Below are positions 17,001 to 30,186 of a stretch of DNA of 64,000 bases, piece by piece. A model generated the notes under the pieces. That model did not search any database, had not been told where the DNA came from, and saw only the letters and a program-made list of their open reading frames with translations. This stretch comes from Flammulina velutipes (lineage: Eukaryota; Basidiomycota; Agaricomycetes; Agaricales; Physalacriaceae): contig CM022368.1 in the NCBI GenBank assembly GCA_011800155.1, positions 1,674,001-1,738,000 on the forward strand. Reading direction: 5' to 3'. Position 1 is the stretch's first letter. Each line of letters opens with the position of its first letter. Made by a program: the position numbers and the translations under genes.

Positions 17001-20000
17001 TGTACCTTTTCTTGGATTGGCGACTTCGATAAAACCTCGTTCCAGCATGACGAAATGGCGTCAAAATGGACACTGAGCAACGTCGCAGCCAGAGTCTCCG
17101 TAGTAAGCCGTACCTCTTCCTGAAAGGGATCAGCATGAGAAGACATACGCCGCACAATTAGTGTCACGTACCCTTTCGTCGGCCCAGAGGGACACAAAGA
17201 AGTACTCAAAGACGTCGATGACATGAGACCTCCACAGCCTATCCTCGACATTGAATGAGGGACTGGAAGCATCTAAGATAATGCGAAACAATCGAGCTAC
17301 GCCTTCGAGTCTGCAGAATGATTGTCAGGGACTAATTGTAAGTTTCATTACGACGCTAACCTTGATAGCCATTCTCCACCTTTGCGGAACCATCGCTTGA
17401 GTATCGAATGGAAGGGCTGGTCGTCCACTACAATGACACGCAGAAGGAAAGAGGCTCTTAGCTCTGAAACAACATCCCGTTGTATACCATACAGCTGCCA
17501 AGCACTGAAAACAAGTCGGTCGGTCAATATGCATGGTCACCAAAGAAGGGGAAACACATACCACTTCGACAACAGTACACCGTTCCTCAAGATGAAATTG
17601 TCGATTTCATGTGGCTCAAGATACGGAGAGTCGGTGAAAAACATGTTGACGAACTGGGCAATAAGGCACGAGACATCGTCGTTATTCGCTTCTAGGTAAG
17701 AGCTCAACACGCTCATCAGGCTGGGAGGTATGATGATAGGATCGGATACGAGTGATTGTCGGGCGCCCAGTTTTCTCCTTTCAGAGCATTAATGTGTGTG
17801 TCCTTGTCGATTCAGAACCCGCACCTACCGTGAGGGTAAACCTTCCACTTCTTCATCCAGTATCATCTTCAAACTGAGTAGCTTTGATCGCTCACAGCCA
17901 TACAACGTGAGGCAGGTGCCGAGAGACAAACGCACGAAGACAAGACTGTAGAAAATCGAAGTGAGAAAACAGCAACAAAGAGTGACAGCCACGTACACAT
18001 CTGGGGAGCATTTTCCTGTTCTCATTTCTTCTAGCACTTCTGCGAGGTGTCGCTCATGTAGGGATGCAAACATGTCTTGAACTGCTAATCGCGCGGTTGG
18101 CCTTAACCAGATAGACGACATCATAGCTTTGACAAATATCGAACTCTCCAAAACGGACGTTTTGAACTTGCCCATGGCCGTGATGAAGCGATTCCAGGTC
18201 TGGGTTGGTATCTCCGCGCCAGAGCGCGCGAAGACGTAGAGCCAATGCAGAGCTTGAAGTAAACTCTCCTTGCTCTCAGTTGTGGCGGTTATGACCCTAC
18301 GCCAGGGATCGATACCAGCCATATCTGCCCCACTGCCTATGCCAATAGCGCCATGTTGACCTGAATCGAAGGTGCTCATGCGATAAGAGTCCGTGTTCTC
18401 GCGAGGTAGCAGACGCAGCAACGACGGTACAGGCTAATGGCGCGATCAATACACTTCGGAACGAGATGGAATTTCTGACATACATCCTTGAAAGAGGGCA
18501 AATTTGCTACCACATCGAGCCAGCGGTTGAATAGATCATCTAAAATCGCGAAAGTTATAGAGTTCTGTGAGAGCCGTATGATGAGCCGTAAAAGTTTGTC
18601 GAGATGCTTTCCACTATTGACGTCGGGATTTACCGATGCCCTGGGTTTCGGATGAAGGACATCGTATGTTGTCAACGACTCTTGCGAAGTGTCTAAACAT
18701 ATGTCGAATAGCATATCGGTGTATGTCTCTGGTTCTTCGTTGTGCAACGCCTGGAGCCAAGGGACCGCGTAATGAGCAAGCAATGAGCGCCTTGTAGCGA
18801 CGTAGTCTCCCCCATTGTTGGAAGAGCCCTGGGGCAACGCACGGGAACGTTGGGTTTGTGGCCAGGACACATCGCGGCTCGATTGCACACCGGGAAGAAC
18901 GCGTTGTTTCGCTACATACTCCCGAAGAATTGTTGCGAGGTCCTCATCCTGCGTAACGAAGATTGGAACGTTACACGATCCCTTGATTATGAGCACACAC
19001 CTCAGCAAAGACCCATGAGACGATAGCACGGACGAGACGTCGCGTCGCGTAGTCCGAAGCCATGCTATTCGGTGGCAACCTCCTTGCGAGTAACAGGAAT
19101 CCCGTCTCGTTGATAGAGAGGTCTATATGTGTCAAACATGCTTCGATTGATCCAAAGAGTGTCTCTACGTCGGTGGAAAAGTCGAGGCCGAAAGGCAATG
19201 GAAAGAGGCAAGCAACTCCCTTCCCCGCCTCGACATCAGTCGCATCTACTCGTCCATCTACTCGTTGGAATAGGCCAAGGTGTAGGAGATGATTCAGCAT
19301 TAGCTTCGTGATCGAATCGAGGCGGAGGTTAAATTCGCAACCGAGAGCATTGCGAAGGTGGGATGTAGACACAAGTTCGTACGGATGAGAGAATGAATCG
19401 GATGAGTCAGAGACGTCTGGCGGATACACACCTAGCATATCCGACGAGTTCCTGTGACCTGTGCTCATGGTAAATGGTGCTTTGATGGTTGATGCTATGT
19501 AGACGAGATTGGCCCAGTCGAAGACGATGGTATGTTTCTTCCGAGTGATCCTGGCGGTTTGTAGATATTCGTCTTGAGCATCTGATATAGGAAGGCTATC
19601 AGACTCTATAAGCTCTTCGCACATCTTGAGAGTGTGATGAAGTTCAAATGCGTCCACGCCTTTCTTTGATCCTTTCTTCATCAACTCCATGGAGCCCAGC
19701 GCGAGACCATTTTCGAGTAGTTGGACCTGCACCCAAATAACAGATTGGAGGACAGACACCTCTTCAAAAGACTTCGCCGTCAAGTCCTCTTTCGTAAGCT
19801 GCAAAAGGTCCCCATAAAACGCCACGCACGATTGTCGCAGTGTACTCGGCTGCACAAGTATATGACTGGAATCTGGCTCAAACGTTTGACACGGATGTAC
19901 ATCGCGAGAAGTTGCGCAATGCCAGTGCACGAATTGCATGCAAGATATACATCGATATCCTTGTGCGTATATGCCCCACAGAGGCTCGCGGCACGCTGTG

Positions 20001-21909
20001 CATAGACAGAGTGCAAAGATGTTGACGGGACGAAAAGTGTGGCCTTGGGATCGAAGGACCTGAGGACCATAGTCACGACGACCGCCCAAAACGTCTGAGA
20101 ATCGGTAGATCGCCACCTTCTGCATCGATGCATCAGATGTCATCGAATACTTGGCGAGATGGCAACCCGAGGGAACGTCAAAGCAGTCGAAATGCACTGA
20201 ACACGAGCAAAACGGGCAACAAAGACCAAAGCCGTCGAGAGTTTGTGAACAGGATCGACACTCGTGTCGCGGTGTCCGTCGAGTGGAGGTAAAACGCCAA
20301 GGAACGAATTGATGTTCATGGGGATGGTCCTGGACGACATATTGCATTGCAGGAGAATTGGCCAAGTACGCGGATGACTTGAGAGCGCGGGTAATCGTTA
20401 GATGGCCAACGGCCTTGGGCCAGAAGGCTACGAGTAGACTAGCAGCTGAATGACGAGCTCTAGGTGTATGGTACGCTAGGACCTCCAAAACGTCCAGATA
20501 TGCATCCAACTTGGCGGTGAATATGAGATCTAGTAAACGATGAAGTCTGTGAAGGACATCAAGGCCTGATTTAGATTCCATCCCAAAGTCGATGTTGTCC
20601 AGTATCGCTGCCAAGAGAGGAGGGACGATTGAAGCAAGGAAGTAGATGGCAGATCCTTGTAGTGGAGCATTGGTAGAAAGGATGTTGATGACTTGGTGAG
20701 ATAAATTGTCCACCCAAGGTGTCCATTGGGGTTTGTGCGTCGGCGCGGGCTCCTCGTCATCTACACCGTCTACTCGAATCGAGACCATGGGCTCTTCGCC
20801 GTCATGCTGGAAGTCAAACGGGTTTGGACCTAAGACAAGGTTAGCATGTCTTCCAGTATATTATGACTAACGTACTCATTTCAGATATGGAATTCAGAGT
20901 TCCCTGCGCGTCGCGCAAATTGTCGAGGACGCCCCGTATGATGCTTTCCTCGTAAAACGCAAGGAGGCGGGCGTGCATTTCTTGAGGAAAAGTGAAGAAA
21001 GCTGGCAAAATAGCGTAGGCTATCTGGGAAACAATCTTGGGGCTGTTACGATGCGTGTGGAGGAGGAACTGGGCCACTTTGAGCGTCAAAGCCTGGAGAG
21101 CGTTTGGAGGGCGAGATGGTCTTGGAGGGCTTATCTTGAAGCGACAATCCTCGGACACGACCGAGGTAAGCACCGACATGCACTGGGACAGCAGCTCGGT
21201 TGACTGAACGCGTCCTCCAAAGGCAGGAGACGGTGAACGCGATCGTTTCCCAGAAGGATGTAGCGTGTTGATTGATCGTCGAAATGGCGAAGAGCTCTTT
21301 CCGCTGTTGCGCTCTGGCCGTGAATTATCTTCGGACCTATCGCGGGAGTGAGTAGGCGTTCACAAACCGCACAAAGAGTGGCACGCACGGTTCATCGAAT
21401 ATCTGCCATCCTTGAAGCACTGATATCATCAAGACATCCCGCAGTTGCGACATAAGGTCGAACGTCACGTCCGTCGAGAACGTCCCGTCTGATTCTCCTT
21501 CGTCGTCCTCATCTATATCACGGGAGGCGTTTGGCTTGTTGTTGTTGTTCAGTTTGACGGCCTGTTTCACGTTTCCTACAAAAGTTGCAAAACCTTTCTC
21601 CTCCGACATCCCGGTGGTCGCTCCAAACGTTTCGTAGACTGTCGGTGGCATAGGGCGACTGGATAGCTGACGGAGAAGATGTGCCAAGAGCTTGCGCGAC
21701 TCCTTGCTTCTCGTGCTGGCCTTTCTAGGGAAGCCTGGAGATAGAGGAGGTAGGGTGATTTCATTCGGAGTCGAGGAAACTTTGAATGAGGGCAATGAGG
21801 GTGAAGTTGGCGATGGTACACGGAGACCATCATAAGTCGAGGCATTTCGCGCAATAACTGTGTCGATAAATATGCCAGGAGGCTTTCCTGGACGAAGACT
21901 GTCTTCCAT
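14096..21909 (-). CDS. Giant helical-repeat protein with tandem C1 zinc fingers, UNC79/UNC80-like
   Basis: A 7.8-kb gene of over 2,000 residues with many short introns; start MEDSLRPGKPP at 21909, stop at 14096 after RRAGRLAS. The longest uninterrupted stretch (18971-20788, 605 codons) contains two C1-type fingers. The first is around 20190-20310 with CPFC, SVHFDCF and a final Cys. The second is around 19880-20040 with CTAC, CISC and VHWHC. Both follow H-x12ish-C-x2-C...C-x2-C-x4-H-x2-C. Just before them is DVLEVLAYHTPRARHSAASL followed by FWPK, which recalls the animal UNC79 segment that precedes its own zinc-binding region. The rest is alpha-helical, ARM/HEAT-like sequence without catalytic motifs. 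UNC79/80 assist NALCN channels, and fungi have the related Cch1 channel, so a channel-accessory role is plausible but unproven. I read it as one gene because open frames link across the whole span, but a split into two genes cannot be excluded. Confidence 0.68.
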
Positions 21910-22021
21910 GTTGTCGGATAAACGATGTTAATAGATGATCATGGCAGGACGCAGACATGGTCGCATCAAAATTGGAACAACTCAGTTTCTATCAAAGTCA
22001 ATCTTGGACGGATATAACATA

Positions 22022-22544
22022 TAATTAATACAGAATAATCTAGCCATCCAGGATGGCCGGTATGTAGATGGTCAGGACACCTCCTGCGTCAGTAATGCCG
22101 CCAATATACACATACAAAATCAGGCAATGGTCCTGGCAGACGCCCGTTCTTGTTAGATGAAAAACCGCAGCCAAAACGCACAGGCAATCGTTGTCGTCGA
22201 CACTACATGGCTGTTGAGAAATTTGAAGAAGCTTCTTATCGAAACATTAACGGAAAAGTGTTTGTCTGGATCCGGGGCACCGTCCTCGCTCTGAGATGCC
22301 GCTGGCTCCCTCTCTCCGACATTGGCCTTATTCGATCCACAATTATGCGCAGCTTTTGAAGAGGCGGTAAGACTACCTGAACCTGACAAGTTTTTTCAGC
22401 CCACAGTCACAGAACGTACAGGAAAGATTGGCATACATCTGGCTCCGGGCACATTGGTTCGTTGAGCTTATCGACGTCGGTCGGTTTCAAGACTTCTATC
22501 TTCACGTCGTGGGTAACCTTGACGTGTCGGTTTAGGCGTATTGT
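22022..22544 (-). pseudogene. Decayed 3' fragment of hus1 (second copy)
   Basis: About 90% identical by eye to the 3' part of the intact hus1 gene at 25231-25911, same orientation. It starts inside a coding exon, at the codons corresponding to TTRLNRR, and ends just past the stop codon (22040-22042). It has no 5' exons. Inactivating changes: a roughly 150-bp internal deletion (junction near 22315, between short CTC repeats) that removes one whole intron and much of an exon and shifts the frame; loss of the AG acceptor of the last intron (AACAG became AACGG); an 8-bp intron deletion. Homology stops abruptly at both ends, and the left end lies about 110 bp from the start of the UNC79-like gene. 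Confidence 0.88.
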
Positions 22545-22610
22545 TACATCTACTAAGGTGACAAGTATCGGTCTGGGCAAAATTTTTAGCACAAGAAGAC
22601 GAACATGGCT

Positions 22611-24749
22611 CTACCGGAGAGCCGGAGGCAAATTTGCGTTGTGGTCATCCGGCCTACTTCGCTTGAGCTGATGAAGATAGTTAGCAAAAGGCTGGGAGTT
22701 TCTAGGCTAATGAAATGTGTACCTCATTGATATTGCCATAGATTTCACCGGTTGTTTTGGCCAAGTTGATGACTTGGCAATGGTAGCGTTCCGCCACAAG
22801 TTCATTCGTGTCGATAGCCTTCTTGACCATCCTCTGTTTGCCATCCTGGTCTATGTGGCGATATTTGGCAGAGAGCGGGAAGGGGAGATCGACGCTATAC
22901 TCTGAGGTGACGATAATGTAGATAACTTTGTCGACACCTGGAAGCCCCTTCAACCAGTGAAGCCCAGTTGCGCTGACCGAGTGGCCACTACTGACGGTAG
23001 CTTGGAGGGCATATGCCGTACGGGTTTCAGATGTGTAGATGAAAGCATCGAAGGAAGGATGGTTTGCCATTGTAGGCCTGTAGTATCCACTGTGACCCGT
23101 GAGATCAAGTTTGGCTAGGGTAGAGTACATATAGACGGTCAGATTGCGGATGGGAGGGACAGCTGGTTGGTCGTTGGATATTTGTGCTGGTTCACCTAGG
23201 CCGCCAACTGTGAAGAAAGCGGAAGCTGAAGGATCCGAACTGTCCATGACCGTCCAGAGTTGATTGACATCCGGCTTGGATTTACTCTTCACGAGACGGA
23301 GCAATTCCCATACACCTGGCTTTGAAAAGAGGCGGTGAAGTCCCGCGTCCAGCATCAAACCTGCTGGCACGCGCGTGTATGGATGCGCAAGGAAGTTTTG
23401 GTAAACAGTATTGACCTGGAGTTCCCAGCTCAAAGAAGTATGCTTGTCGACTAGTTCTTTGATATATTCAGTCGCTAGAACTCCCATGCATCGGGTGCGA
23501 GAACCGGGTTGGGCGATGACTAGGACGATGTGATGGGAAACCGAATCTTTCATAACTTTGCTAGGATCGTGCAAGAGCGTGAAGAGTTCTCCCCATTTTG
23601 AGGTTTCGATACTTTCGATGAGGTTTCTTTCCCACTCTATGAGCGCTTCTCCCACGAATGAAAGGCCGGTACGGAGCGATGGACCAAATTTTTGATAAAA
23701 TTCAAGCACGTCGCTGCATTTGAGGTGCGGGCAGGAGATTTCAGCGCTGGGAACAAGGTTACGTTAATCGTGACAAAGGGGCAGGGCGGGACTTACATTG
23801 CAATGAATTCATCGAGTGTTGGTGGTTGCAGGAAGATCTTTTGGACTAGATTCTGCGGGGAGCTACGTTTTATCCAATCCATATGAAAGCTGCAAGGAGA
23901 AGTAGGTTGAATCAAAAATCCACGGTTCTCGTATAATGCAAGATCATCAGCTGAGCCTACTTGTACGTCCGAGTTGAGGAGGCACCAGACATTGCGATCA
24001 ATGACGGTCTCTGAGAACTTCGACAAGGCTGCATCGGCATTGGGAAACATTTCGACGCCATTTTCATCGCAGTAAAAGTATTTCTTCCTGTCAATAAACC
24101 ATGTCGGGCGGCGGGTGATGCATCGCATAGCGAGAAGAACGTAGAGAAAAAAGGTTTTTCCTGGGGAGACGACGTCAGTGTCGATCTGATTCATCAAGTA
24201 TACTGAATTCATACCGGTTCCAGGGTGTCCAGTAAAGACCAGGCCAAAGCTCCTGACATCCGGAGACTTGTTCCAATCGGTTTTCATCCACTCCGGTCGG
24301 GTCAAGCAGCGCGCGCTATCGTCCTCAGAGATATCCTCTGACTCGGAGTCTCTGTGATTGGCCCTGTCAGTGGTCGTTTCCATCGCACAAGGAATAGCTT
24401 ACGAGTCAACGGCGTCATCCAGGTCGCTGGAGCGAAGCGGAGCGGGTTGTGAGTTGCCACAATACGGTATACTGACAAAACCAGTCGCGCCATATTTCGC
24501 GTTGAGGGAGGGGCCAAGTGTACCGTCCCAGTGCCATGCCTGTAAAATACTCAAGGCGATCTTGTACTCGTCCCGTATGAGAATATATTGAGGACTCTGG
24601 TCGGCGCCAAAGACTTCTGGATGGAAGTCAAGGACTGTCCAGTTGTGGCCGCCGAAAGATTTCGTCTCAAAGACCTCGTCGAAGTCAACACCCCAAGACC
24701 TGTGGTAAAGACGAGAGGCGGCGAAAGGCGAGTTAGTTGGCAGCTTCAT
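22611..24749 (-). CDS. Crinkler-RHS-type P-loop NTPase with nuclease-like C-terminal domain
   Basis: Start 24749 (MKLPTNSPFAASRLYHRSW). After an N-terminal region of about 120 residues and an acidic stretch, a Walker A motif GHPGTGKT is split by an intron and followed by FFLYVLLAMRCITRRPTWF and YFYCDENGVEMF. The C-terminal half ends in a segment reading FDAFIYTSETRTAYALQATVSSGHSVS, the weak D-...-(E/Q)-x-(K/T) arrangement of the REase-like domain paired with such NTPases in fungal Crinkler and trypanosome RHS families. These families are known to be patchy, expanded and linked to transposon-derived effectors. The frame can stop at 22702; I prefer a last 55-nt intron with a CTAAC branch site, which adds LKRSRPDDHNANLPP and ends at 22611, 66 bp from the hus1 fragment. 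No signal peptide. All splices keep frame, so it looks intact. Confidence 0.75.
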
Positions 24750-25230
24750 GGTTGAAAGGCAAGATTACCAATTCCCACGTACAATTCGGATTCCACCTAA
24801 CTTTTCTGCCAAAAATGATACCTCGTTTCACGACGCAGTCGCACAAATACCGTGCCTCCTAAAAACCTGAGAACTCACATACATAGTAGCAAGAGGTGCC
24901 AGATCTCTGAATCTTGGATACCGATCAAGCCACGCGAGATTCCACGGCAATCATTGTTCGGTCATTGCCGTGGACGCCACACTGTGCATTTGAGGGAGTA
25001 AACAAGGTGGTTTCTGACTAGAGTGTTGCAATGATCACGAAACACCTCACTCCTAGTCTCCCGAAGCCTGACTCTATCGCTCGAAATTGATCTGTATACA
25101 CAGCTCTTGACTGTACAAGTAATACTTCCCCCCACCACAAGCGGAGCTTCCCGAGTTCAAATCTTCCAATGTTAATTGATTTTTTGGTGGCTTGGCCCCT
25201 TCCCTCAGGCGATACACTATTTTGCACTGT
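24750..25230. other. Spacer between hus1 stop and the CR-type NTPase gene
   Basis: 481 bp holding the hus1 3' flank and the NTPase promoter. Apart from the inverted repeat at 24941-24974 I see no coding exon or RNA gene. It has no visible similarity to the flank left of the hus1 fragment, so the duplication does not extend here. Confidence 0.5.
24941..24974. repeat. Perfect 11-bp inverted repeat (hairpin)
   Basis: TCCACGGCAAT at 24941-24951 and its exact reverse complement at 24964-24974, separated by 12 bases. It lies in the 24750-25230 spacer about 190 bp upstream of the NTPase gene start. The rest of that spacer shows no gene. Possible protein-binding site, structured RNA or trace of a mobile element. 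Confidence 0.7.
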
Positions 25231-25911
25231 AATTACAAAAAATCTAGCCATCCAGGATGGCTGGTATGTAGAAGGTCAGGACACCTCCTGCGTCAGTAAC
25301 GTCGCCGATATAAACATACAGAATCAAACAATGGTCCTGGCAGACACCTGTTCCTTGTTAGATGAAAAACCGCAGCCAAAACATATGAACGCACAGGCAA
25401 TCGTCGTCGTCGACACTACATGGCTGTTGAGAAATTTGATGAAACTTCTTATCGAGACGTTGACAGAAAAGTGCTTGTCTGGATCTGGCGCAGCGTCCTC
25501 GCTCTGAGATGCCGCTGGCTCCCTCTCTGTCGACCAGTAAGTACCAACGGGATGAGAGTTCAAAGAACATACCCAAGGGCGCATTAGAACACTTCAACCA
25601 CAATGTTTCGACCTTTACGCTCTCAGTGTGTATGGAGAGTCGCAGACACCCATTGTTGTTGACATGGATAGCAAGTATCTCCGACATTGGCCTCATTCGA
25701 TCGACAATTGTGCGCAGCTTTTGAAGAGGCGGTAAGACTACTTGAACCTGACCAAAGTTATTTTAGCTCACAGTTACAGAATGGACGTGAAAGGCTGGCA
25801 TACATCTGGCTCCGGGCACATTGGTTCGTTGAGCTTTTCGACGTCGGTCGGCTTCAAGACTTCTATCTTCACGTCGTGGGTAACCTTGACGCGTCGATTT
25901 AAGCGCGTTGT
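25231..25911 (-). repeat. Direct repeat partner: 3' part of intact hus1
   Basis: This segment, from just beyond the hus1 stop codon to the middle of a coding exon, is the parent or replacement of the copy at 22022-22544. It is 681 bp long against 523 bp there; most of the difference is one deletion in the other copy. Confidence 0.85.
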
Positions 25912-26384
25912 GCCAGTGATTTCAAAGCTCAGCACTGCCTGGTCGTTTTTCTTTGCGAGTTTCATGACAACTTCATCTGTGGCGTACGAGGAAGAGCTGG
26001 ATGACGGGGAGGCAGAACGCAGGGCAGTCAGAAGGGCTTCAGAGGAGATGTTGACTGTGATAGTGTTCGACGCGTTGGATTGGATTCGGTATCCACTGAA
26101 TAGTGAGTCTACCTTGACCTGCCTAGTAAGAATACAATGGGACATCGCGACTCTCTTGAACGTAAACACTCACGACCAGACTTGGATGCCGCCTTCATTC
26201 GTGTCGCTGTTGCATATCAGATGCATGTGCGTCTCCGTAAACTTGATTATGCATTTCTTCTGCAGTTTTTCTATGGATTGAATGATCCCTGGAGAGGCTT
26301 CCAGTCGCGTCGAGGTTTCCTTCAAGTCGTGTTTGACGCACGGTGGAATGTAGGGACGTTCTCTATCGACGCTCTGAACCGCAT
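25245..26384 (-). CDS. hus1: Hus1, subunit of the 9-1-1 DNA-damage checkpoint clamp
   Basis: Forms the PCNA-like Rad9-Rad1-Hus1 ring that recruits checkpoint kinases at damaged DNA. Start 26384 gives MRFRASIENVPTFHRIIQSI, matching the family's KFRA start. Further on: IIKFTETHMHLIC, ITVNISSEALLTALRSA, the diagnostic VKVTHDVKIEVLKP with CPEPDV, LPPLQKLRTIVDRM, and the C-terminal FSVNVSIRSFIKFLNSH, VCQDHCLILYV and LTFYIPAILDG. Introns of about 46-55 nt all keep frame, including the last one (47 nt, GTGCGT...GAACAG) that links STTTIAC to VCQDHC. Length is near the usual 280-300 residues. Its 3' part is duplicated at 22022-22544 beyond the NTPase gene. The next upstream genes are two RPA2-type single-strand-binding proteins. 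Confidence 0.94.
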
Positions 26385-26686
26385 CTGAAGACCACGAGTG
26401 TGTTGACAAAGGCCGTTCACCCGTGCATTACTGTTTAACGACGCAACGTTGTGGAGGAAAACAAGAGGGATTCTGTCACGTGCGATCATAATACAACTGG
26501 TAACTTAGTCTCAGTCTGAGTCTCCTCCAGTGCCACAGCTTGCTCGTTGGTCACTCGAAAGCCGGGCCTCCATGGTGAAAACTAACGCGTACTATTTGAA
26601 ATACAATGTATACAAAATTAAAGATACAAAGAAGATTGAAGGATATATCACACCAAAATTACAACAGATACATGAACACATATTCC
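26385..26686 (-). promoter_or_regulatory. hus1 promoter region
   Basis: 302 bp between the RPA2-like stop and the hus1 start on the same strand. AT-rich near 26600-26660; no clear TATA box or other motif. Confidence 0.4.
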
Positions 26687-28237
26687 TCACTTGGTCACAG
26701 CAAAATGTTCCTTGTCAACCGTATCATGGATAAAGCCTTGACGTAGGAGCTCTCCCAACGCTTCTCTAGGGAAAATGAAGTCAAAACCTGAGAGCACACC
26801 ACAAATGCAAAGGCAAATGCTTACTTTATCTCCGATGGTGTGTATTGCAGCCTCGCTAAAGTATTCAAGATGTATGTCCGCGATATCCCCACATTCGAGG
26901 ATTCGGACACGACAGAAACCTCCTCCTCCTCCAAGTTGATCGACGGATATATCGTGCTCTTGCTGCCCTCTTCCTCGGCAAGGAATATCATGATGTCGCG
27001 TTCAGTGTTACTGAGGGTTGCGTACGGATCGAGACGTTTCCTCGCCTTGAGTTTGGAGCCGCGAGACGTTGACGCCACGAGGGTGGGCGAAGAAATTGCC
27101 TTCTTGGGAGATCTCTTGCTCGATGGAGTTGATATAGTTGGAGGGCTTGGATTGCGCCGCCGACGGGGAGTCGGCGTGGAGAATAGCAAAGAAGATGGAT
27201 CATCATCATTCGCCATCATGTCCCCCGAAGCCTCGTTCTCGGAGTCCAGAGTAAGGTCAATCATAACGGTGGGCTCAGACAGCTTGGAAGGTTTGCGCCT
27301 TACGCGGGCGCGTGAAGGAGTAGCCTTGGGAGTTGGTGGCAGCGTTGTAGACTTTGAAGACTCGCGATGTTGTTCTTCAACGGGAGATACAACGACGGGA
27401 TGCGCAATTGGTGGGGCGGAGACGCGTAGAGGGGTGGTGGGTGATAGAGGTGGGGAAGGCATGCGCGTCGGAGAGGGTATAACAGGTGTTTCTTCGACAT
27501 CCTGAGCAAAAGCTTCATCCTCTTGAACAATTACAGGTTCGAGTTCCGGCTCTCTCTGCACACGAAGATTAGCTACAACACATTAGAGGTCCATACCGGG
27601 CTTACCATCGCCTTCAAAACTGCAATATGTTCGTATATCGCTTGCAGGGAATGTAGGTATACCGCCAGATAATCCTTCTCTGGACGCAATACGACTTCCG
27701 CGTGCATACTCACAGACCGCTGGTACTTGTTCAAAATTCCCATCGCCACCACGTAAGGGCACTTCTCCAATTCGTCATCACTGTATGAGAATGCATTCAA
27801 GGTCGACACAGCAGTGGCTCGAAATTCATACCTCAAGTCAAGGATGGTCTTCACAAAATCATCTTTTGGATTTTTCCACACCTTGAGCTTCATCTTGCCA
27901 GAGCCATCGTCGAGGAGGTACTCCCATCTATTGGGATACTTTTCGAGACCAATGACTTGAGCGACTAATTTGACCTGAATGATATCTGCATTGATCTTTC
28001 GAATTTCAAAAACGTTCGGTCGCGAGAACACACCTTGCTTAGTGCGTATCCATCCAACGAGTACGCTTTATGGGTGGTCCCGAACTTCTCTTCGATGTTT
28101 CGCGCCTGGGCGATTGTCAGGCAGCGAACAGAGTCAGTCGCAGTCGCGAAACGATACTAAGCGATGCAGAGATTAACTCAGACTTTGCAACAAACAGCCT
28201 GTTAACTTACATTCTGGGTACCAGGCGAGTCCGACAT
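26687..28237 (-). CDS. RPA2/Stn1-type OB-fold protein with winged-helix C-terminus
   Basis: Probably binds single-stranded DNA, as an RPA32 paralogue or a telomeric Stn1. Start 28237 (MSDSPGTQN). Spliced exons give IEEKFGTTHKAYSLDGYALS, then an OB fold: VKLVAQVIGLEKYPNRWEYL, LDDGSGKMKLKVWK, CPYVVAMGILNKY. A Ser/Pro/Thr-rich linker of over 100 residues contains VMIDLTLDSENE, which looks like a SUMO-interaction motif. The C-terminus is a winged helix: SNTERDIMIFLAEEEGS, then across a 59-nt intron LQYTPSEIKEALGELLRQGF and a stop at 26687. This mirrors the end of the neighbouring RPA2 (VREALDRLMDDGIIY), supporting an RPA2 relationship. Stn1 has the same first OB fold but usually two winged helices; only one is visible here. 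Fold secure; RPA2 paralogue versus Stn1 undecided. Confidence 0.78.
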
Positions 28238-28423
28238 TCCAAGAGCCAGCCCGGAGAGCTGTATGATGGTACAGACGGAACCGAACTTGACACAAACAAA
28301 TACACACCGTCCACTTGGGATGTATCTTATCTCAACTAGTACTATAACGCGAGATTTAAAGTACAACGTTCATATATAAATACAGCACTAAACTAGCCAT
28401 ATGTAGGATCAGGATATAGAGCA

Positions 28424-29579
28424 TCATCGGGAAACTTTGAAGGTTGATTCGTCCAAAGTCGTGTAGATTATACCATCGTCCATGAGACGATCCAAAGCTT
28501 CACTAATAACATTGTTAATGCTGCTATGCGCAGAGCGACGATAGTAGTACATACCTGACTTTGTTAGCCCCGTTGTCTGCCGCGTCCATACCAATGCTGA
28601 CCGCGATCGTACCTACGTTTGTTCCCGGACTGTCATCATCCTGTGCGAGCATGAATTCAAGTATTTTTCGCTCCAGATGAGGAAGGGTGGCCCATTTCTT
28701 GTTGTTGGCGGTCAATGACGCCGCGCTTGCGCTGCTCCCACCGGATGCCTTGGCGCTGGGACCAGTTTGCTCCTTCAGTTTACTAGAAGGCTAGAAATGA
28801 TTGAGCTTCCTGGTAGCTCACATCAACGAGCGAACATACAGATCCGTGTTCAGTCTGCAGCGTGACTGCGATACATTCCAGGAAATGGAAATCAATTTCG
28901 TGGCAGTTGTTCTTGTTGATAGCTGGGCGAATGGCCAAGTTGGTATTGACGTAACGTTTGGTGCCAAATGTTTTGAGCTGGCCAGTGACGCGGACAAACA
29001 TGCCTTCCCTAGGAAGCAAACGTGAGTAGGGAACACAAGAGTAAAGAGAAACTTCACACACTCGATGCCGCCCCATTTAAGAAGATCCTCATCGTTGGCA
29101 GAATCATTCCAATGCCGTACTTCGTAGGATCCCGTGCCGTCCTCGACGTAGTATGTCGTTGTTGTAGCCGTCTTTTGTATGTGATGAACTTGGGCCACGA
29201 CAGTAACCTATCGAATACATCAATGAAGGATGGGAGAAACGCGACGCGACGCGTACATGTCCAACAGTCGCGTCGTCCAGAATCCAATCTGCATCACTGT
29301 GCGGCTGGTCGCATTTTTTCAGCTGGGCAATGGTCATCGGCCTCAGAGCCTGAGCAGCTTCATTTTTCTGCCAAAAGTGAGCAGCGAGCCTGGAAATCGC
29401 AAGTCGACGGACCTTGGAAGCGTTGCTGGGACTGCCATTATTGCTGCCCAAAGGAGAGCTGTTACCGTCTTGGACGAAGCCTCCTCTGCTAGTCGAATTT
29501 TCATAGTAGTTATCTGATTCAAAGGTATTCAGCGCTGTGCAGTCCGACGACGAGAGACGCGCTTACTTTGACTTGACAT
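28424..29579 (-). CDS. RFA2: Replication protein A 32-kDa subunit (RPA2/Rfa2)
   Basis: Middle subunit of the heterotrimeric ssDNA-binding complex used in replication, repair and checkpoint signalling. Start 29579; the first exon is 13 nt (MSSQ plus one base), spliced to a Ser/Gly/Asn-rich N-terminus (YYENSTSRGGFVQDGN) like the phospho-regulated tail of the family. The OB fold follows: RPMTIAQLKKCDQ, VTVVAQVHHIQKTATTTTYY, VEDGTGSYEVRHW, EGMFVRVTGQLKTFGTKRYV, IDFHFLECIAVTLQTEHG. A linker leads to a winged helix (ATLPHLERKILEFMLAQ ... EALDRLMDDGIIYTTLDEST) that in other organisms binds repair proteins. Stop at 28424. It starts only 48 bp from the start codon of COA8 on the other strand. Very secure. 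Confidence 0.94.
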
Positions 29580-29627
29580 GGTGGTAAGAATGAGCGCGTT
29601 GTTTGGTGATGTTTGCTTGTCCCGCCG
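29580..29627. promoter_or_regulatory. 48-bp divergent start-codon spacer, rpa2/coa8
   Basis: Only 48 bp separate the start codons of rpa2 (minus, 29579) and coa8 (plus, 29628). The 5' UTRs must therefore overlap or be extremely short, or each promoter lies within the other gene. Two out-of-frame ATGs (29590, 29609) precede the coa8 start. Confidence 0.7.
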
Positions 29628-30186
29628 ATGCTTGCACTCCTGCTCCGATCACGGTCTGCTCGCGCGCTGCACTCGTCGGCGCCGCGCAACCATCTTGTCG
29701 GTGCGCCACATCCAATATCGCATATTCGACCAGTTCTCTACGACGATGTCCCGCCACCGCCACCTCCGTCGTTGCTGCAACATCCGTACTCGCTAGCCGA
29801 GTTCGACCCAGAGCCGCCAGTGGGATCAGGCCAGTATGACGTCCAGTGGAAACTCCAGAGACAGCAACTGGATGACTTGGACCAGAACTTCTGGCTAGAC
29901 GTGTGTGGCGCCTTTTCGAATATAAAATGGAAACTGATAGACAACATAGAGCAATATTCGCTTTGAAAATGGCAAGCAGGCCGTCTTGGCGAGCCTGCCC
30001 GAATCGGCTTCTCCTCTGGACAAGGAGGATGCTCTCTCCGAGTTTTACAAGCAGTGGGTCATGCAGGAAAAATCCCGCACGGATGATTATACGCAGGAGT
30101 GGCGCACAAGGAACATACTTTGCATTCAATTAGCTGTCCGCGCACATTTGGCGAAGCTGGCCAAGATGATTACTTTTAATCAGTGA
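29628..30186 (+). CDS. coa8: COA8/APOPT1-like mitochondrial protein (cytochrome c oxidase assembly)
   Basis: Exons 29628-29900 and 29950-30186 give 169 residues. The start MLALLLRSRSARALHSSAP is an arginine-rich mitochondrial presequence. The body has the family pattern: HLVGAPHPISHIRPVLYDDV, then LDQNFWLDSNIRFENGKQAV joined across a 49-nt intron, ALSEFYKQWV, YTQEWRTRNILCIQLAVRAH. In animals COA8 protects complex IV assembly under oxidative stress; fungal members are little studied. The stop is 40 bp from the convergent NUP133 stop, so the 3' UTRs probably overlap. Confidence 0.86.

What the first reader, a model, noticed from the sequence alone, without database searches (positions are those of the whole stretch)
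22022..26384. hus1 locus with a WHO-like layout: intact gene, nuclease-like gene, 3' gene fragment
Seen: reading along the minus strand, intact hus1 (26384-25245) is followed by an apparently intact P-loop NTPase/REase-like gene (24749-22611), then by a decayed copy of only the 3' part of hus1 (22544-22022), all in one orientation. Known: in the WHO homing elements of Torulaspora and relatives, an endonuclease gene sits downstream of FBA1 together with a leftover FBA1 3' fragment, because the element inserts into the gene and supplies a replacement 3' end. Inference: the same strategy may be used here by a Crinkler-RHS-type gene on a checkpoint gene, with the intact 3' exons being the incoming, functional replacement. 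I know of no description of this for hus1 or for this NTPase family.
Basis: partly seen in the sequence, partly recalled or inferred. Interest (0 to 1): 0.88.

Follow-up and report, generated by a model that had tools for sequence, protein, structure and literature searches.

The report
hus1 with a displaced old tail
In a mushroom-type fungus, a DNA-damage checkpoint gene (hus1) is followed by an unfamiliar ATPase-like gene and then by a decayed second copy of the checkpoint gene's tail; the two tails seem to have drifted apart while both still worked, so this is probably not a simple recent copying error, but there is no proof that the ATPase-like gene caused it.

Summary
On the minus strand there is an intact six-exon hus1 (26384-25245), an intact five-exon P-loop gene of 642 aa (24749-22611), then a broken copy of hus1 codon 124 to stop (22544-22022). 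This pair gives the only direct repeats of 45 nt or more found in the window. New evidence: the two 3' ends differ mostly at synonymous sites (21 synonymous, 10 nonsynonymous codons). A fragment dead from birth is rejected (P 0.003-0.004 by one statistic, 0.002-0.018 by another), and neutral gene copies elsewhere in this genome differ from it (P 0.007-0.01). So the fragment was probably part of a working hus1 for much of its divergence. That fits replacement of the 3' end by a diverged allele, the product that WHO homing leaves. It fits an old whole-gene duplication, later truncated, almost as well. Evidence against active homing by the P-loop protein: no recognised nuclease domain, no visible ExK at the presumed motif, and two related genes elsewhere without neighbour fragments. 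Discordance between 5' and 3' hus1 is inconclusive. No relative's DNA or empty allele was available, so the history stays open. WHO-like in layout, not a WHO member.

The parts
25245..26384 (-). intact hus1, 295 aa; exons 26384-26342, 26288-26174, 26122-25804, 25747-25573, 25526-25395, 25347-25245
   Evidence: gene model; Pfam PF04005; orthologues
25230..25911 (-). 3' part of intact hus1 (codon 124 to about 15 nt past the stop) that has a second, broken copy
22022..22544 (-). broken hus1 3' fragment; lacks about 150 nt matching roughly 25529-25680 (most of the end of exon 4 plus intron 4) and has small indels; differs from the intact copy at 6/137, 5/137 and 21/136 first, second and third codon positions and 12/105 noncoding sites
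22611..24749 (-). P-loop NTPase-like gene, 642 aa; exons 24749-24403, 24351-24215, 24160-23797, 23746-22723, 22667-22611; Walker A GHPGTGKT; possible degenerate nuclease motif FDAFIY...YALQATVS (motif reading recalled, by eye)
   Evidence: paralogue at G000:C1:2547700 (54% over the exon-4 frame; 52% over the aligned protein)
24884..25032 (.). remnant of a roughly 460-nt MITE-like element with 29-nt inverted ends (fuller copies on C3 and C5)
24805..24884 (.). 80-nt remnant of a second, 456-nt MITE-like element (copies on C1 and C9, 98% alike, inverted ends of 27-29 nt)
22545..22610 (-). 66 nt between the P-loop gene's stop and the fragment; the fragment may serve as its 3' UTR (inference)
25779..29978 (+). 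segment copied to G000:C13:687282-691442 (82 substitutions in 4139 sites): hus1 exons 1-3 plus RPA2-like genes; used as a neutral control for the fragment
18971..21927 (-). UNC79-like gene that follows the fragment (UNC-79 and C1 matches slightly below Pfam's cut-offs)

Best explanation
The locus is a chimaera of two hus1 alleles. A recombination or break-repair event between diverged haplotypes (or introgressed alleles) left one working hus1 whose 3' end comes from one allele. Behind it came a P-loop gene that lay downstream of that allele, then the displaced 3' end of the other allele, cut at codon 124, which has since decayed. Shown: the layout, the intact frames of both genes, the sharp ends of the duplicated piece, and a statistical excess of synonymous differences between the two tails. 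Inferred: that they were alleles, that one event made the structure, and that the P-loop gene rode along as a passenger rather than cutting the DNA.
For: Fragment versus intact: 21 synonymous and 10 nonsynonymous codons; third positions 15% against 4% at first and second. A purely neutral fragment gives P 0.0027-0.0043 on the nonsynonymous share and 0.002-0.018 on the nonsynonymous count. In the fit, dropping the functional phase costs 3.0-4.3 log units; the three best fits put 0.63-0.88 of the divergence before decay, though values from about 0.25 to 1 lie within 1.92 log units of the best in one fit or another. Neutral copies in the same genome: 48 nonsynonymous, 30 synonymous and 4:3; Fisher P 0.010 without and 0.007 with the latter. 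Of the ten amino-acid changes, three hit residues fixed in 20 of 20 orthologues (T125I, D277G, F287I) and one a site that is R or K in 20 of 20 (R130H), which fits a later phase of decay. No hus1 5' remnant lies between intact gene and fragment, so one event is simpler than duplication, insertion and deletion.
Against: Only 31 differing codons carry the selection signal. In the Nuf2-like part of the control, third positions are also raised (12 of 69 and 17 of 154; pooled control P 0.052), and fragment against control by codon position alone gives only P 0.039. Both tails share 14 of 16 lineage-specific residues where they can be compared, so any donor was a close relative. No second allele or empty site was seen. 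Flanks beyond stop+15 are unrelated, where allelic 3' UTRs might still be expected to align.
Confidence: 0.42

Rival explanations
1. Old whole-gene tandem duplication: two working hus1 genes stood in a row; later the P-loop gene replaced the 5' half of the second copy, which then decayed.
For: Explains the constrained divergence equally well; needs no second haplotype. The genome does copy segments about.
Against: Needs duplication, insertion and deletion; no trace found of a second hus1 5' half or of a duplicated flank between the genes. A checkpoint-clamp gene kept in two working copies would be unusual (own knowledge).
Confidence: 0.28
2. Active WHO-like homing: the P-loop protein, with a recoded hus1 3' end, cuts other hus1 alleles near codon 124 and is copied in by repair, pushing the old 3' end downstream.
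For: Order, orientation and 3'-only fragment match the WHO product (PMC7282813, section 10). Constrained divergence of the tails. A 3'-weighted excess on the window branch: tip 0.087 for 5' versus 0.479 for 3', rank 3 of 71 taxa. An independent copy on C13 also ends in hus1, 132 nt from the fragment's start.
Against: No intein-type or other homing domain in Pfam scans. The presumed nuclease strand reads QAT, not ExK, in this gene and in its paralogue (by eye). The paralogue on C1 and a distant relative on C7 show no neighbour fragments. The 3'-heavy pattern is not special: two of 71 taxa exceed it, private residues split 4 to 9, near the overall proportion, and in several outgroup comparisons the 5' part is fast too (for example 8 to 3). 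Only one fragment, no cluster.
Confidence: 0.12
3. Simple partial duplication: the 3' end of hus1 was duplicated, for example by long-tract repair when the P-loop DNA inserted, and the extra piece has decayed neutrally since.
For: Simplest event; the genome has other partial gene copies.
Against: Synonymous bias of the differences, unlike the neutral copies on C13.
Confidence: 0.14
4. Assembly artefact: two haplotypes stitched in tandem.
For: Dikaryotic fungi are prone to this (own knowledge).
Against: The fragment is decayed with a frame-shifting deletion, and apart from the MITE remnants and the P-loop paralogue no second copy of the DNA between the two tails was reported in the assembly.
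Confidence: 0.04

Closest known systems
WHO homing elements at FBA1 (Torulaspora, Lachancea; PMC7282813)
   Same: Full-length host gene, then an element gene, then a 3'-only fragment of the host gene, in one orientation; the TdFBA1 S and R alleles are 85% identical downstream of the cut (section 10), the two tails here about 91% over aligned sites (44 differences in 519).
   Different: Different host gene; the element protein has no recognised intein or homing domain; one fragment only, no cluster, no known empty or polymorphic alleles; no cleavage shown; related genes elsewhere lack fragments.
Crinkler-RHS-type (CR) NTPase proteins (Zhang et al. 2016, seen only as described in passages of PMC5289972)
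   Same: P-loop NTPase with a possible REase-like C-terminal region.
   Different: No profile match above a cut-off; degenerate motif by eye; no homologue among the candidates that the word-based protein search scored.
Ordinary partial or tandem gene duplication with pseudogenisation
   Same: A broken partial copy next to its parent.
   Different: Differences suggest past protein-level constraint; an unrelated intact gene lies between the copies.

Membership tests
WHO element | Element gene directly downstream of a full-length host gene, same orientation | tested here: met
WHO element | 3'-only fragment of the host gene downstream of the element gene | tested here: met
   the only repeat of 45 nt or more reported in the window
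WHO element | Intein-type endonuclease with zinc finger | tested here: not met
   Pfam scans of the exon frames and of the whole spliced protein found nothing above a cut-off
WHO element | Host 3' end more diverged than its 5' end, with contradictory 5' and 3' trees | tested here: inconclusive
   Identity to Mucidula 88% for 5', 75% for 3'; 3'-excess rank 3 of 71 on a fixed tree; rate test 3' P 0.001-0.035 over 9 outgroups, but no change point (P 0.56). Separate topologies were not compared.
WHO element | Displaced 3' end was once a working allele | tested here: inconclusive
   Past constraint supported, but a whole-gene duplicate would show it too, so allelic origin is not shown
WHO element | Empty or polymorphic alleles; repeated insertions at the locus | not testable with these tools
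   No relative's genome is held (notice); one locus in this assembly
WHO element | Encoded protein cleaves the sensitive host allele | not testable with these tools
   bench assay needed
CR (Crinkler-RHS-type) protein | P-loop NTPase domain | tested here: met
   Walker A GHPGTGKT, GHPGIGKT in the paralogue; weak AAA_25 and nSTAND3 matches below cut-off; motif reading by eye
CR (Crinkler-RHS-type) protein | REase-superfamily C-terminal domain | tested here: inconclusive
   No profile hit; models unusable; motif read by eye only

The most novel reading that the evidence does not exclude
A P-loop NTPase gene unrelated to inteins works as a 3'-end-replacing selfish element on the checkpoint gene hus1. 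It spreads by breaking hus1 alleles and carries a recoded hus1 tail that is resistant to itself. If so, WHO-type homing arose independently in mushrooms, with a different protein and a DNA-damage checkpoint gene as target.
Probability: 0.1. Interest if true: 0.88.

Novelty: new variant of a known kind. Interest (0 to 1): 0.5.

Why it matters
If the tail of a checkpoint gene can be swapped together with a linked foreign gene, 3'-end replacement is not peculiar to FBA1 in yeasts. One could then search fungal genomes for full-length gene, single gene, 3' fragment triplets and apply the codon test used here. Even as a one-off chimaera it would be a displaced gene end that kept a record of having worked.

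Tried and rejected
Homologues of the P-loop protein: none at E <= 1e-3 among the 7994 candidates scored for the whole protein, and none at E <= 10 among 1154 candidates for residues 380-612. The word-based search is weak for diverged families, so rarity is not shown. Relatives in viral and prokaryote contigs: none confirmed among 67 and 186 pattern matches. Solved structures: three hits, E 0.79 or worse, taken as chance. Structure of exon 4 and of its C-terminal part: models too poor to search with, so no fold search was run.

The C13 copy of hus1 as the missing 5' half of the second gene: rejected. In the 133 columns that it shares with both copies, fragment and intact differ at 13, and C13 follows the intact copy at 13 of 13. 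A change point in hus1 at codon 124: not found. MITEs as the vehicle for the P-loop gene: remnants were found on one side of the gene only; the other side was not searched beyond.

Rows dropped: searches used 20 orthologues of the 120 listed (402 matched; one search's rate test used 9 of them as outgroups, chosen by me); one search used 116 of 120 (length 285 or more); one search used 70 of 120 (length 288-312, the first 70). One search ended with an error in its last print line, after the figures cited here. The control uses reading frames and exon limits that I chose by eye. Papers: PMC7282813 outline, abstract, found passages and section 10; PMC5289972 passages; PMC12693581 passages (all in its reference list); other papers seen only in listings. 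Literature searches that could have shown this arrangement listed 2, 0, 1, 0, 0 and 1 papers, and nothing I saw of these describes it; the library lacks most subscription journals.

Full report
The window lies in a 38-Mb, 23-contig assembly (G000, contig C1). The hus1 protein is closest to Mucidula mucida (79%), Guyanagaster (77%) and Cylindrobasidium (73%), so the fungus is an agaric near the Physalacriaceae (family name recalled). No related genome is held, which limits every historical conclusion below.

What is there. hus1 runs from 26384 to 25245 on the minus strand in six exons with normal introns and codes for 295 aa. The P-loop gene runs from 24749 to 22611 in five exons and codes for 642 aa. 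The fragment runs from 22544 to 22022 and matches hus1 25911 to 25230, that is codon 124 to about 15 nt past the stop. It lacks about 150 nt around intron 4, which throws it out of frame. Homology ends sharply: the flanks tested on either side are no more alike than shuffles. In the whole 64 kb the pieces of this pair are the only direct repeats of 45 nt or more that were reported.

The P-loop gene. It has a Walker A motif and one clear paralogue at G000:C1:2547700 (54% over the exon-4 frame; 52% over the protein). A weak relative lies at C7:697517 (28% over 80 residues, E 0.002). Pfam, NCBIfam and PADLOC scans gave nothing above a cut-off. By eye, the C-terminal stretch FDAFIY...YALQATVS could be a restriction-nuclease-like hairpin with QxT in place of ExK, the same in the paralogue; no tool confirmed this. 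The paralogue sits between genes that I read as SDA1-like and NADH dehydrogenase 75-kDa-like (names recalled; ORFs), with no duplicated neighbour piece found in 9.0 kb. The C7 gene shows none either in 9.9 kb, beyond low-complexity and short weak repeats. So 0 of 2 other family members examined show the hus1-type layout.

The key result. Fragment and intact 3' end differ at 6 of 137 first, 5 of 137 second and 21 of 136 third codon positions, and at 12 of 105 noncoding sites; of the codons comparable in full, 21 differ synonymously and 10 nonsynonymously (135 codons). I simulated a fragment that was dead from the start beside a constrained parent (transition bias 7, set from the 64 transitions and 18 transversions of the C13 copy). 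A nonsynonymous share as low as 10 of 31 came up with P 0.0027-0.0043; with a different statistic and biases of 2-8, P was 0.002-0.018. A fit with a functional and a dead phase prefers a long functional phase, and leaving that phase out costs 3.0-4.3 log units; the range of acceptable splits is wide. The same genome supplies controls. C13 holds copies of other genes: 48 nonsynonymous and 30 synonymous codons in a copy from C5 of similar divergence (7.4% against 8.5%), and 4:3 in the hus1 5' copy. Fisher tests against the fragment give P 0.010 and 0.007. Against this, 31 codons are few, the control frames were chosen by eye, the controls' third positions are slightly raised too (P 0.052), and the codon-position comparison of fragment and control gives only P 0.039.

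Amino-acid changes. Of the ten, T125I, D277G and F287I hit residues fixed in 20 of 20 orthologues, R130H a site that is R or K in 20 of 20, and T172I a site that is T in 16 of 20; E148D, M177I, A229G, I247F and V278I lie at more variable sites. The first group looks like decay, the second like ordinary drift of a working protein. Of 16 sites where the window protein departs from a shared Mucidula/Guyanagaster residue and the fragment can be read, the fragment shares 14, has a third residue at 2 and keeps the ancestral residue at none. Both tails therefore come from one close lineage.

Tests of 5' versus 3' discordance. Identity to Mucidula is 87.7% for the 5' part and 74.9% for the 3' part; Mucidula against Guyanagaster gives 86.3% and 82.5%. 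Relative-rate counts show a fast 3' part on the window branch with P 0.001-0.035 over nine outgroups, but the 5' part leans the same way with seven of the nine. On a fixed tree of 71 sequences the window ranks third for 3'-excess. Residues private to the window split 4 to 9, close to the proportion in other taxa, and no change point appears (P 0.56). I call this inconclusive.

The second breakpoint in hus1. A 4.2-kb copy of window 25779-29978 lies on C13 and ends within hus1 intron 3, 132 nt from the fragment's first base. Where fragment and intact differ in the shared stretch, the C13 copy follows the intact gene at 13 of 13 sites, so it was taken from the intact-type tail. Its surroundings are a mosaic of copies from C1:4161004 and C5:2450402. 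So this genome does paste gene fragments about with no P-loop gene seen at the site. Two breakpoints close together in one gene are curious but prove nothing.

Judgement. The layout is WHO-like, and the selection record fits a displaced working 3' end. An old full duplicate fits nearly as well. The claim that the P-loop protein homes rests on layout alone, and what could be tested speaks mildly against it. I keep it as the bold reading at about 0.1.

Noticed in passing
G000:C13:682000-691442 (L009) against window 25779-29978: Mosaic of copied segments from C1:4161004 (94%), C5:2450402 (89%) and this window (98% by substitutions), with introns; a site that collects fragments of other loci, one ending inside hus1 intron 3.
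   Followed up: partly
window 26687-29562: Two neighbouring RPA2-like genes beside hus1 (my reading): an RPA_C match at 28424-28612 and weak OB-fold matches below cut-off in both; both lie in the segment copied to C13.
   Followed up: no
window 24805-25032: Two different MITE-like remnants abut at 24884; fuller copies of about 460 nt with 27-29 nt inverted ends lie on C3/C5 and C1/C9.
   Followed up: partly
hus1 codons 124-295: The 3' part of this hus1 looks fast on the window's branch; two other sequences (P0013, unnamed, and P0040, Serpula lacrymans) show a stronger 3' excess.
   Followed up: partly
G000:C7:697517-697756 (L038): Distant relative of the P-loop gene with FDSF...GFKMTIANEHS near its C-terminus, also without a visible ExK.
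   Followed up: no
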